Source of the DNA: an uncultured bacterium
GTDB taxonomy: Bacteria > Elusimicrobiota > Elusimicrobia > Elusimicrobiales > Elusimicrobiaceae
Length of the DNA: 64,000 bases
Assembly: GCA_949291515.1 (NCBI GenBank)
Contig: CASEVY010000010.1
Location: 186,001-250,000 of the forward strand
Reading direction: 5' to 3'
Shown: positions 15,519 to 35,323 of the stretch, piece by piece
Layout: each line of letters begins with the position of its first letter
Position numbering within the stretch: the stretch's first letter is position 1
The notes under the pieces: model-generated
The model's database searches: none
Seen by the model: only the letters and a program-made list of their open reading frames with translations
What the model was told of the DNA's origin: nothing
Made by a program: the position numbers and the translations under genes

Positions 15519-15560
15519 CAGTCAAAAAACGCTTGACTGTTTTTTTTTTTTTGATAAATT
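15519..15560 (+). promoter_or_regulatory. Poly-T promoter element, copy 1
   Basis: TTGACT (15533-15538), G, then 13 T (15540-15552), then GATAAATT with TAAATT at 15555-15560 as -10. The spacer is 16 bp and is almost entirely the T tract. 104 bp downstream is the ATG of a Cys-rich secreted protein. The 5' flank ACAGTCAA can pair with TTGACTGT, giving a hairpin followed by U, so terminator function is an alternative reading. Copies 2 and 3 of this element are at 20320-20347 and 34586-34612. Confidence 0.7.
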
Positions 15561-15664: not shown

Positions 15665-16279
15665 ATGAAAGAAACAAGCAGCTGTTTTAAATTGTTTTTA
15701 TTTGTATTATTTATATTTTCCGTTGTTTCAGCGTATGCGGAAAGTTGTTCAAGCGTAGGATCTACTCAAAATAAATATACCGCCAGCGGCTGCAGCTATA
15801 CTACACAAACGAGAACTTGCTGCGCAAACGGCAGTTGGAGCAGTTGGGATAAAGCGTGCACCGGAAAGGAGAACTGTACTTCAAGCCAATGCTGGAATGG
15901 AAGCAAATGCGAGGATAAAGGCAGCACCAGCAGATCTTGTTCGGGCAATGTATCCAATGCCAGCGGCGGTACTCAAACCCGTACGGCCACATGCGGAAGC
16001 GGAGGTTGGCAATACGGCTCTTGGACCGGCACCTGTACTTGCAAAAGCGGGTATGTATGGAGCGGCGGCGCTTGCATATTAAGCGCGCCGAAAGAATATG
16101 TATGGGATAACGGAAAAGGCAATTATATAAGTTTTTGCGATGACGAACCCAATTGCGTTTCGAAAAGTATAGCCGGGACAAAATGCACTTCTTTGTGGTC
16201 GGAAAAAAGCGTATGTATAACGGAAGGTTACAGTAACGGTATGTGCATAGTCAAAGATTTTACATGCGTTGAGAAATAA
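15665..16279 (+). CDS. Cys-rich secreted protein, cassette 1
   Basis: 204 residues. Signal peptide with cleavage after SAYA, mature start ESCSSVG, which recurs exactly in the protein at 34703. More than 20 cysteines follow, arranged in short modules of the type [GTQT-R-T-x-x-C ... G-x-W-x-x-W/G-x-C], for example 'TQTRTCCANGSWSSW' and 'GGTQTRTATCGSGGWQYGSW'. This spacing is reminiscent of thrombospondin type 1 repeats. The last 70 residues lack the repeats. The protein is predicted to be exported and disulfide-bonded, hence a surface or secreted factor. GGAGG ribosome-binding site. It carries a poly-T promoter upstream and a terminator block shared with cassette 3. Function unknown. Confidence 0.85.
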   Translation: MKETSSCFKLFLFVLFIFSVVSAYAESCSSVGSTQNKYTASGCSYTTQTRTCCANGSWSSWDKACTGKENCTSSQCWNGSKCEDKGSTSRSCSGNVSNASGGTQTRTATCGSGGWQYGSWTGTCTCKSGYVWSGGACILSAPKEYVWDNGKGNYISFCDDEPNCVSKSIAGTKCTSLWSEKSVCITEGYSNGMCIVKDFTCVEK

Positions 16280-20156: not shown

Positions 20157-20319
20157 ATTGGCGGACAGAATTTTTGCCCTCTTTCAAAATGGGTGTTCAT
20201 ATTATTTATCCAGTTTGGTGATTTGCTCTTTTTTGATTAATCGGCTTGTCTTTATAATTAAAAAATCGATTCTAAAGTTCTATAGGTCAGCTCTTGCAGA
20301 ATAAAAACTGTCGAGCGGC

Positions 20320-20347
20320 TTGACTGTTTTTTTTTTTTTGATAAATT
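20320..20347 (+). promoter_or_regulatory. Poly-T promoter element, copy 2
   Basis: TTGACT (20320-20325), G, 13 T (20327-20339), GATAAATT with TAAATT at 20342-20347; spacer 16 bp. Identical to copy 1 across the 28 bases. The ATG of the prepilin-like gene is 89 bp downstream. Confidence 0.7.
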
Positions 20348-20436
20348 GAGGCTATATTTTTGTCTGCGGTTTTTAATTCTCCAGATAATAAACCAGGTTT
20401 GCTTGTATTTAACTTTTTACGTGCGGGAGGTTTTAA

Positions 20437-21933
20437 ATGAAAGATAAAACAAAAAGTCGGAAAGGTTTTACCCTTATGGAAGTTTTGGTAACGGTGCTTA
20501 TCGTTGGAGTATTGGCCGCGATAAGTTATCCTGTATATAAGAAATCGGTTACGAAAGCAAGAGCGGTAGAGGCGGTAAATTTGATAGAGCTGGTTAAGAA
20601 TAAACAAATACAAAATTTTGCGCAAAACGGAGGATATTTCGACGATTTTTCCAATATAGACAGATTGACTCTCGGCAAGGAAGAAAAATCGGGGGCTCAG
20701 CTTATAGTAAACGAAGATTATTCCTTATATTTAAACGCCGCCAAATCTTGTGTCAGCGCGTACTATAAGAAGGGTACTCCTTCCGAATTTAGCTTTTCCG
20801 CCGGCTATGAAGACGACGGTTTGGGGTGCAGCGGCGCGGTATGTTCAAGTTTTGGGAACATCATAGGCGATACCAAAAGCGTGTGCAACTGCGGAAATAA
20901 GAGCTGCGGCAACGGATATACTCTTAATGAAGAAACCTGCTCATGCGAATGTTTGCAAGGCTGTGAAAGCGGCGGAAGCTGTTATACGCCTTATGGAGGC
21001 GGACAAAGCAGGCCTTGCGCGAGCGGGTGCGGCACTCAGACCAGTACAAGCACATGCAGCGGCCCCAGCTGGAGCGGTGCTTGCGGAAGTCCAAGTCAAA
21101 CTAAACCCACAAGCCAAAAATGCGGCCGCGCCAATTCCGGTACTCAGACAAGGACTTGCACCGCAGACTGTAATGGCGGGACCTGCGGCGCCTGGGGGCC
21201 TTGTCAAGGCCAAACCTGTGACACTGCTTCCAAACCGATATTATCACAAAAATGCGGCAACTGCGGTACGCAAAGCAGAACCGTAACCTGCAATACCAAT
21301 ACAGGTAATTGGAATACCCCCTCCGCTTGGGGAACTTGTATTAATCAAGGGGTATGTTCGCCTAACGCCACGAAAGAGTGCGGCGGCGGAAACGGCAAAA
21401 TACTCTGCTCCAATACTTGTTCTTGGGGAACTTGCCAATGCAATAAAGATTATGTGATGGTTGACGGGACTTGCCAGCCGGATTGTTCCATACATTCCGT
21501 AAAGATCGCAAACAGAGATTATTGCTGCGCCTCGGCTCCAAAAACTGACAACGACTGCTATAAAGATTGTCAAAAGACTGGCGTTAAATATATTACGAAG
21601 CATTATGTCGACAGAAGTACGAAGAAAACAGTTAGAGGCTCTTCTTCCCAACAATACATAAGATGTTCGGGCGGTGGATATTACAGCGGTTCGGGATCAT
21701 ATCTGCCAAGCAATTGCAGCTGGGGATATTTTCAGACCTGCGATAGCATTCCTTTTGACTCTCTCTCCAACAACGGGCAGTGTTTTACTTCCACTTGTAT
21801 AGATAAGGCTTCAATACGATGGGCTGTTTCTGGAAGTTCGCCCACTTCAAGTTATATTGAATTTAATGAAGTTTCTTACAGATGCGTTACGGAAAGCTCA
21901 AGCTATACTTATACCGACAGATGTAAGATTTAA
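20437..21933 (+). CDS. Type IV pilin-like protein with long Cys-rich repeat domain, cassette 2
   Basis: 498 residues. The class III leader is clear: MKDKTKSRKG / FTLMEVLVTVLIVGVLAAI, with cleavage after Gly10 and the conserved Glu at mature position 5, followed by a pilin-like helix and a short globular part to about 130. Residues 130-350 are a Cys-rich array with at least four modules of the type 'CGTQTSTSTC', 'GTQTRTCTADCNGGTCGAW', 'CGTQSRTVTCN...W...WGTC'. The C-terminal 150 residues are also Cys-containing but not repetitive. Typical major pilins are 120-180 residues, so this is a pilin-like surface display protein or minor (tip) pseudopilin. GGAGG ribosome-binding site. No pilus assembly gene is in the window. 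Confidence 0.87.
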   Translation: MKDKTKSRKGFTLMEVLVTVLIVGVLAAISYPVYKKSVTKARAVEAVNLIELVKNKQIQNFAQNGGYFDDFSNIDRLTLGKEEKSGAQLIVNEDYSLYLNAAKSCVSAYYKKGTPSEFSFSAGYEDDGLGCSGAVCSSFGNIIGDTKSVCNCGNKSCGNGYTLNEETCSCECLQGCESGGSCYTPYGGGQSRPCASGCGTQTSTSTCSGPSWSGACGSPSQTKPTSQKCGRANSGTQTRTCTADCNGGTCGAWGPCQGQTCDTASKPILSQKCGNCGTQSRTVTCNTNTGNWNTPSAWGTCINQGVCSPNATKECGGGNGKILCSNTCSWGTCQCNKDYVMVDGTCQPDCSIHSVKIANRDYCCASAPKTDNDCYKDCQKTGVKYITKHYVDRSTKKTVRGSSSQQYIRCSGGGYYSGSGSYLPSNCSWGYFQTCDSIPFDSLSNNGQCFTSTCIDKASIRWAVSGSSPTSSYIEFNEVSYRCVTESSSYTYTDRCKI

Positions 21934-21952
21934 GCCTATGCTTAATACCCGT

Positions 21953-21977
21953 CCCCCCGCATTTCAAATGCGGGGGG
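21953..21977 (+). terminator. Hairpin after the pilin-like gene
   Basis: 10-bp GC-rich stem (21953-21962 with 21968-21977), 20 bp after the stop; no U tract follows, so it may be a weak terminator or an RNA 3' stabiliser. Confidence 0.6.
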
Positions 21978-22084
21978 TATAATGAAAAAAAAAGGTTCTC
22001 AGCTTCTTTTTGAAAAAGACGTGAAAATATAACTGCCGTATATGCGGCGCGGCTTATGTCTGTGAGTTTTTTGTTTTTTAAATA

Positions 22085-34433: not shown

Positions 34434-34585
34434 TTTTTGCGGATATGGCGTTTCGCAGCTTTGTCTGTTTGCTTTGCAAGTTGAAACGGCGGTATTTTTT
34501 TGAATATTGGTTTGCGGCGGGCTATTGTTTTATGCGGGAAAACATACAGCCGTACGTCGAGGTATTTTCTAAAAGCAAAAACAGC

Positions 34586-34612
34586 TTGACTGTTTTTTTT
34601 TTTTGATAAATT
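34586..34612 (+). promoter_or_regulatory. Poly-T promoter element, copy 3
   Basis: TTGACT (34586-34591), G, 12 T (34593-34604), GATAAATT with TAAATT at 34607-34612; spacer 15 bp, one T shorter than copies 1 and 2. The ATG of the Cys-rich gene is 90 bp downstream. The flank AAAAACAG can pair with CTGTTTTT around the TTGA, a hairpin alternative. Confidence 0.68.
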
Positions 34613-34702: not shown

Positions 34703-35323
34703 ATGCAAAAAATAAAAATATGTTTAAAGGCGTTTTTATTTATGTTTTTTGTTTCCTTCTCGGCTCTTGGTTTTGCCGAAAGCTGTTCAAGTGTTGGTGT
34801 CGTGCAATATAAGCCTAAAGGAAGTTGTGATACGTCATCGCGAACTTGTTGCCCTAATAAAATCTGGTCTGGCTGGGGTGAGGATTGCCCGAAAACCTGC
34901 GACCCGGCGACGAAACCCGCCACTACGGGCAGCTGTGGTGAAGACGGCAGCGGCACATGGAGCAGAACGGTAACTTGCGATACTTCCACCCTGACGTGGA
35001 AAACAGGCAGTTGGGGTATTTGCAGTTATTGTACCCCTGGCGCTACCAATTTGACTCGTTGCACTTTTCCGCAAAGGGGAGTATGCAATTCGATGGGGAC
35101 GGCATGGGTTTGCGATTGCCCCAATGACAATGAAAGGAAAAACTGTATGCAGGGTGGGGTTTCAGGACAGGCAAGGATGTGGTCTTCTAAAATGTGTCGT
35201 TGTATTTGTTGCCCGGAAGGGGCTGCTCCGAGGCCTACTGTTGATGGAGGGATCACGTGTTGGAAAAATAATCGTCAAGTGCCTCTAACAAGGTGTCTTA
35301 TAGGAGGAGCCGGTATAAAGTAA
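34703..35323 (+). CDS. Cys-rich secreted protein, cassette 3
   Basis: 206 residues. Signal peptide (cleavage after GFA), mature N-terminus ESCSSVG identical to cassette 1, then 'SSRTCCPNKIWSGWGEDC' aligned with 'QTRTCCANGSWSSWDKAC' of cassette 1. A second module 'GTWSRTVTCDTSTLTWKTGS' has the W...R.C...W pattern also present in the pilin-like protein. The C-terminal 95 residues are Cys-rich ('CRCICCPEGAAPRP') but unrelated to cassette 1. Predicted to be exported and disulfide-bonded. GAGGAAAA ribosome-binding site. Function unknown. Confidence 0.85.
   Translation: MQKIKICLKAFLFMFFVSFSALGFAESCSSVGVVQYKPKGSCDTSSRTCCPNKIWSGWGEDCPKTCDPATKPATTGSCGEDGSGTWSRTVTCDTSTLTWKTGSWGICSYCTPGATNLTRCTFPQRGVCNSMGTAWVCDCPNDNERKNCMQGGVSGQARMWSSKMCRCICCPEGAAPRPTVDGGITCWKNNRQVPLTRCLIGGAGIK

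What the first reader, a model, noticed from the sequence alone, without database searches (positions are those of the whole stretch)
20437..21933. Pilin-like protein fused to a long Cys-rich repeat domain
The N-terminus is a clean class III prepilin leader (G/FTLMEV), but instead of a 130-residue pilin there is a 498-residue protein whose C-terminal two thirds is Cys-rich with W...C-x-R-x-C modules. The same kind of module follows ordinary signal peptides in cassettes 1 and 3, so one adhesin-like module appears to be delivered by two different export routes under one promoter type.
Basis: partly seen in the sequence, partly recalled or inferred. Interest (0 to 1): 0.65.

Follow-up and report, generated by a model that had tools for sequence, protein, structure and literature searches.

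The report
Cys-rich modular pilin, poly-T promoter
In a gut-type bacterium of the family Elusimicrobiaceae, a pilus subunit carries a long cysteine-rich tail and is driven by a promoter whose spacer is a run of 13 T bases, a promoter repeated in front of about two dozen pilin and cysteine-rich surface genes and possibly able to switch them on and off by gaining or losing a T.

Summary
ORF 20437-21933 encodes a 498-aa class III prepilin: a complete pilin domain (about residues 1-130) followed by a tail with 43 of its 44 cysteines. The tail shares W/R/C modules with the signal-peptide proteins at 15665 and 34703. Such 'modular pilins' are a known kind, and hits in long pilin frames (up to about 2,300 aa) occur throughout this genus, so the fusion is a new member, not a new class. 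No structure of the tail could be modelled, and adhesion is inferred.

The 'one promoter type' is the larger result. All three genes have TTGACT-G-T(12-13)-GA-TAAATT. Every T run of 11 or more in the 1.5-Mb genome (23 of 23) lies in this promoter: 19 before Cys-rich secreted proteins, 3 before plain pilins, 1 before this gene. Versions occur in at least 30 of 90 family genomes, with none in reversed-pattern controls. In promoter pairs with near-identical flanks the tract length differs in 20 of 25 (pairs not independent). This makes slipped-strand switching of a pilus/surface-protein regulon the best explanation (inferred, not shown). Against it, lengths cluster at a 15-16-bp spacer. The 2-kb cassette is absent from the same site in four relatives.

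The parts
20320..20347 (+). Promoter of the fusion gene: -35 TTGACT (20320-20325), G, T13 tract (20327-20339), GA, -10 TAAATT (20342-20347); spacer 16 bp
   Evidence: consensus supported by TTGACGG-T14/15-C-TATAAT and TTGACA-T14-C-TACAAT/TAAAAT before pilins in G010, G014, G004
20425..20430 (+). Shine-Dalgarno GGGAGG
   Evidence: sequence
20437..21933 (+). Modular type IV pilin, 498 aa
20437..20826 (+). Class III leader and pilin domain (about residues 1-130)
   Evidence: PF07963; AF2 helix 13-64 and strands 83-123; weak Foldseek match to gonococcal pilin 1ay2, probability 1.00, E 8e-3
20827..21477 (+). Cys-rich tail with GTQ.R..C...W..WG.C-type modules, centred on about residues 190-216, 225-261, 263-302 and 304-335
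   Evidence: exact boundaries read by eye
21478..21930 (+). C-terminal region, residues about 348-498, without a detected relative beyond the modules
   Evidence: no alignment beyond residue 380 in relatives; no Pfam match
20160..22080 (+). Approximate limits of the cassette absent from the same site in G001, G011, G017 and G005
15533..15560 (+). Poly-T promoter of cassette 1 (T13, spacer 16)
15665..16279 (+). Cassette 1: Cys-rich secreted protein, 204 aa, Sec signal peptide
   Evidence: absent from the same site in G001 and G011
34586..34612 (+). Poly-T promoter of cassette 3 (T12, spacer 15)
34703..35323 (+). Cassette 3: Cys-rich secreted protein, 206 aa, Sec signal peptide; 69% identical protein at the same place in G001

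Best explanation
The gene encodes a modular type IV pilin. It is inserted and processed as a prepilin and polymerised into (or capping) a type IV pilus, so that its disulfide-rich tail is displayed outside the cell as a binding or coat module. Related modules are exported by the Sec pathway as free secreted proteins. All are transcribed from one promoter family whose -35/-10 spacer is almost entirely a T run of 10-16. Slipped-strand gain or loss of a T changes the spacer (13-19 bp, mode 16) and so tunes or switches each gene independently, making a mixed population of surface states. Shown: the ORF and its pilin domain, module relatedness, the promoter sequence family and its genome-wide restriction to these genes, tract-length differences between near-identical promoters, cassette gain/loss between species. 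Inferred: promoter activity, switching, surface location, adhesion.
For: Pilin domain. Four PF00437 secretion/pilus ATPases in the genome, one about 1.3 kb before a cluster of five pilin-like genes; a plain pilin under the poly-T promoter lies about 3 kb further on, at the contig end. Module relation. Promoter family: 23/23 T runs of at least 11 in the genome are in it, all before Cys-rich or pilin genes; only one run of exactly 10 T exists; window T runs jump from 7 to 12-13. Near-consensus versions TTGACA/TTGACGG...TATAAT/TACAAT show that the T tract is the spacer. Instability: identical 58-bp flanks with T12 in G000 and T14 in G001; three near-identical G001 pilin promoters with T14, T10, T12; 20 of 25 near-identical pairs differ in length. 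Family-wide: 30 of 90 genomes, controls 0. Published precedent for repeat-length control of -35/-10 spacing: porA, fetA, hifA/hifB (PMC5320596, PMC3899988), and for a homopolymeric tract in the promoters of a surface-gene family: vlp (PMC10502178). Modular pilins as pilus-borne adhesins: PMC8179133.
Against: Tract lengths are peaked, not broad: spacer 16 in 32 and 15 in 23 of the 69 assigned of 70 promoters, and one genome has T12 in 28 of 36 listed copies (counted by eye). Some orthologues keep the same length across species (12/12, 12/12, 13/13), and in one pair GG+T13 against G+T14 keeps spacer 17, which suggests selection for a set spacing. No strain-level or read-level data were available. 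Lengths come from assembled genomes (the two named relatives are MAGs), where homopolymer errors are possible. The tail could not be modelled, so an adhesive role rests on analogy.
Confidence: 0.58

Rival explanations
1. The poly-T spacer is a fixed structural feature of a co-regulated promoter class (a rigid A-tract spacer favoured by a sigma factor or bound by a regulator), so the regulon is coordinated and not phase variable; tract differences are tolerated noise.
For: Peaked length distribution and compensating GG/T changes that keep the spacing; an upstream TCGTACGTCGAGG-like element recurs in many copies of G000 and G001 and could be a regulator site.
Against: Lengths range from T8 to T14 in G000 and G001 alone, and differ between promoters with identical flanks; a T42 run occurs in another genus. 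The upstream element is lacking in the promoter of the finding itself.
Confidence: 0.3
2. The protein is a pseudopilin of a type II-like system, or a non-assembled membrane-anchored protein; the N-terminal helix only anchors the Cys-rich tail in the inner membrane.
For: The leader matches GspG/GspH models weakly, all far below their cut-offs; tails of up to about 2,000 residues in relatives would be hard to pack along a filament.
Against: Complete pilin domain; pilus-type ATPases are present; the same promoter drives ordinary pilins; known modular pilins are tip-located, where size is tolerated (PMC8179133).
Confidence: 0.1
3. The T run is the U-tract of an intrinsic terminator between upstream genes and the cassette.
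For: Some copies have an inverted repeat AGTCAA...TTGACT directly before the T run.
Against: Only 2 of 33 copies in G000 and G001 can form a hairpin of -5 kcal/mol or better ending at the tract; relatives have an intact TATAAT or TACAAT right after the tract.
Confidence: 0.02

Closest known systems
Modular type IV pilins (Streptococcus sanguinis PilB with vWA, PilC with lectin-like module; PMC8179133)
   Same: Class III leader, small pilin module, extra C-terminal module grafted on; more than 1,200 such proteins and 264 architectures reported there
   Different: The extra module here is a long disulfide-type repeat region without any Pfam family, with relatives exported as free secreted proteins from the same promoter family
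Mycoplasma hyorhinis vlp genes (poly-A tract in the promoter of every family member; Citti and Wise 1995, as reviewed in PMC10502178)
   Same: A multigene surface-protein family in which every member has a homopolymeric tract in its promoter
   Different: Different phylum and cell envelope; members include pilins and Cys-rich secreted proteins at scattered loci; switching has not been demonstrated here
Neisseria porA/fetA and Haemophilus hifA/hifB promoters (PMC5320596, PMC3899988)
   Same: Repeat tract placed between -35 and -10, so that slippage changes the spacing
   Different: Those are single loci with poly-G, poly-C or TA repeats; here poly-T fills the spacer at 23 loci of one genome

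Membership tests
Type IV pilin (class III signal peptide) | Short basic leader, G|F cleavage site, Glu at +5, hydrophobic helix | tested here: met
   PF07963 30.4 bits (cut-off 21.2), TIGR02532 31 bits (cut-off 16.3)
Type IV pilin (class III signal peptide) | Long alpha-1 helix followed by an antiparallel beta sheet | tested here: met
   AF2 model, helix 13-64, strands 83-123, moderate confidence; weak Foldseek match to 1ay2
[quoted passage not shown]
   the extra region has no recognised family
Modular type IV pilin | Incorporated in a pilus, usually at the tip | not testable with these tools
   needs microscopy or pilus purification
Thrombospondin type 1 / EGF repeats | Match to a curated repeat family or fold | tested here: not met
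   No TSP1 or EGF match for P0001; only a sub-threshold cEGF hit (E 0.27) in the 15665 protein; no significant fold match (low-confidence models)
Slipped-strand phase-variable promoter | Long simple-sequence tract between -35 and -10 | tested here: met
Slipped-strand phase-variable promoter | Tract length varies faster than its surroundings | tested here: met
   20 of 25 near-identical pairs differ in length; between paralogues and species, not within a strain; pairs not independent
Slipped-strand phase-variable promoter | Reversible within-population variation with expression change | not testable with these tools
   no reads, isolates or transcript data

The most novel reading that the evidence does not exclude
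Much of the family Elusimicrobiaceae runs a combinatorial, phase-variable surface regulon: one poly-T-spacer promoter copied in front of dozens of type IV pilins, modular pilins and Cys-rich secreted proteins, moved as single-gene cassettes between housekeeping operons, so that each cell displays a random subset of pili and coat modules.
Probability: 0.5. Interest if true: 0.78.

Novelty: new variant of a known kind. Interest (0 to 1): 0.62.

Why it matters
Elusimicrobiaceae are poorly cultured, and no report of phase variation in them was found in the held papers. If the poly-T promoter switches, it would explain why these small genomes hold so many pilin genes, give a simple sequence marker for their switchable surface genes in any metagenome, and offer a case where T4P subunits themselves are switched one by one at the promoter. 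The modular pilin shows one tail type being traded between pilus-borne and free secreted forms within one regulon.

Tried and rejected
A short regex for the module and hmmsearch with its bias correction on gave no cross-hits; with the correction off and reversed/shuffled controls added, moderate hits appeared, so per-domain bits against controls are quoted rather than E-values. The terminator reading of the T run was rejected (2 of 33 hairpins). No tandem DNA repeat was found in the gene. The first family-wide pattern, with two free bases before the tract, missed G011 and G017; the three-base form recovered them.

Full report
Where it is. The window is G000:C10:186001-250000 of a 1.5-Mb genome. 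Two related genomes of the same genus are titled 'uncultured Elusimicrobiales bacterium'. The genome's own lineage is not named by the tools; Elusimicrobiaceae is inferred from that title and from the relatives' family grouping.

The gene. ORF 20437-21933 is exact. It begins with a 10-residue leader and FTLMEV; PF07963 and TIGR02532 score above their cut-offs. The first about 130 residues are a whole pilin: AF2 gives helix 13-64 and five short strands at 83-123, Foldseek places gonococcal pilin first though weakly (1ay2, probability 1.00, E 8e-3), and short pilins of the same genome align through residue 160. 43 of 44 cysteines come after residue 130. So it is a pilin plus a tail, not a pilin replaced by a tail.

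Not alone. In one search all 18 genomes of the genus, this one included, show a pilin match in an open frame of more than 300 aa, up to 2,290 aa; the proteins read are Cys-rich. G000 itself has five pilins with tails (498, 340, 503, 1,866 and about 312 aa). The nearest relatives of P0001 (55% over residues 7-295) are in G012, not in the closest genome G001. The kind is known: modular pilins are widespread (PMC8179133).

The modules. The tail has repeats of the form GTQ.R..C......W...WG.C, which also occur in the signal-peptide proteins at 15665 and 34703. BLASTP gives E 8e-4 and 1e-7 for these two proteins respectively. Profiles built from one set find the other: P0001 13.9 bits (best control in that search 9.7), the 15665 protein 22.1 bits (best control 11.1), the 34703 protein 13.4 bits (marginal). 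No Pfam, NCBIfam or PDB family covers the tail. Its structure remains unknown.

The promoter. Each of the three genes is preceded by TTGACT-G-T(12 or 13)-GA-TAAATT, 3 matches against 0.07 expected. The genome has 21 copies in a strict form, and all 23 T runs of 11 or more in 1.5 Mb lie in this context; about 1.2 such runs would be expected from base composition alone. Downstream genes of the 23 are 19 Cys-rich secreted proteins, 3 plain pilins and the fusion gene. One further copy, with T8, also precedes a Cys-rich protein. Among the five tailed pilins only P0001 carries this promoter. G010 has an independent case, a 401-aa, 30-Cys pilin behind TTGACGG-T15-C-TATAAT.

The T run is the spacer. 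Relatives show the same layout with clearer boxes: TTGACA-T14-C-TAAAAT or TACAAT in G014, TTGACGG-T14/15-C-TATAAT in G010. In G011, G017, G075 and G014 the T runs examined stand before pilins or Cys-rich genes in nearly every case where a gene could be assigned; one G017 copy has an unclassified 158-aa frame. Two pattern forms find it in 19 and 30 of 90 family genomes, with no match to the reversed patterns.

Does it switch? For: promoters with identical 58-bp flanks differ in length (T12 in G000, T14 in G001), three near-identical G001 pilin promoters have T14, T10 and T12, and 20 of 25 near-identical pairs differ. These pairs are not independent. Against: lengths peak at spacer 16 (32 of 69 assigned) and 15 (23), one genome has T12 in 28 of 36 listed copies, some orthologues keep their length, and one pair keeps spacer 17 by exchanging G for T. 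A set point near the optimum with single-base excursions fits both, but a non-switching promoter class is a serious rival. Control by repeat-length changes in the promoter spacer is established for porA, fetA and hif, and vlp genes have homopolymeric promoter tracts.

Cassette movement. Between the acyl-CoA dehydrogenase gene and the next gene, G001, G011, G017 and G005 have only about 130-230 bp and no pilin, although the dehydrogenase is 93-99% identical. Cassette 1 is likewise absent from G001 and G011, while cassette 3 is present in G001 with a 69% identical protein between conserved neighbours. Gain in the G000 lineage is the simplest reading; no target-site duplication was seen.

Judgement. 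The fusion is a new member of a known kind. The lineage-wide poly-T promoter on pilins and Cys-rich surface proteins is a new variant of a known regulatory kind and the more interesting result. Promoter activity, switching, pilus display and adhesion are inferred.

Noticed in passing
L111 (G040:C4:192221-192237 region): A 42-base T run follows TTGAC before a pilin gene; it may be a real extreme tract or an assembly artefact.
   Followed up: no
G000 contigs C2 and C10 ends (L048, L056): Both contigs end about 100 bp after the same poly-T promoter, inside near-identical pilin genes, so repeated pilin copies probably broke the assembly; the true number of copies may be higher.
   Followed up: partly
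L180, L181, L187 (G011): Tandem arrays of paralogous pilin genes about 620 bp apart, each with its own poly-T promoter of differing length (T11, T12, T13).
   Followed up: partly
upstream of many poly-T promoters, e.g. window 34550-34570, L048, L055: A recurring TCGTACGTCGAGG-like element about 30 bp before the -35 box in many G000 and G001 copies, absent before the fusion gene; possible regulator site or recombination seed.
   Followed up: no
L060 and L104 (G000 C12, G001 C2): Giant pilins of about 1,866 and 2,290 aa with many repeated TNKPVGKYWSGHGGTSATC-type units; the overall length differs between the two species.
   Followed up: no
L183 second copy (G011 C6): A T16 promoter copy in which the bases after the tract (the -10 region) differ from the other copies, near a contig end.
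   Followed up: no
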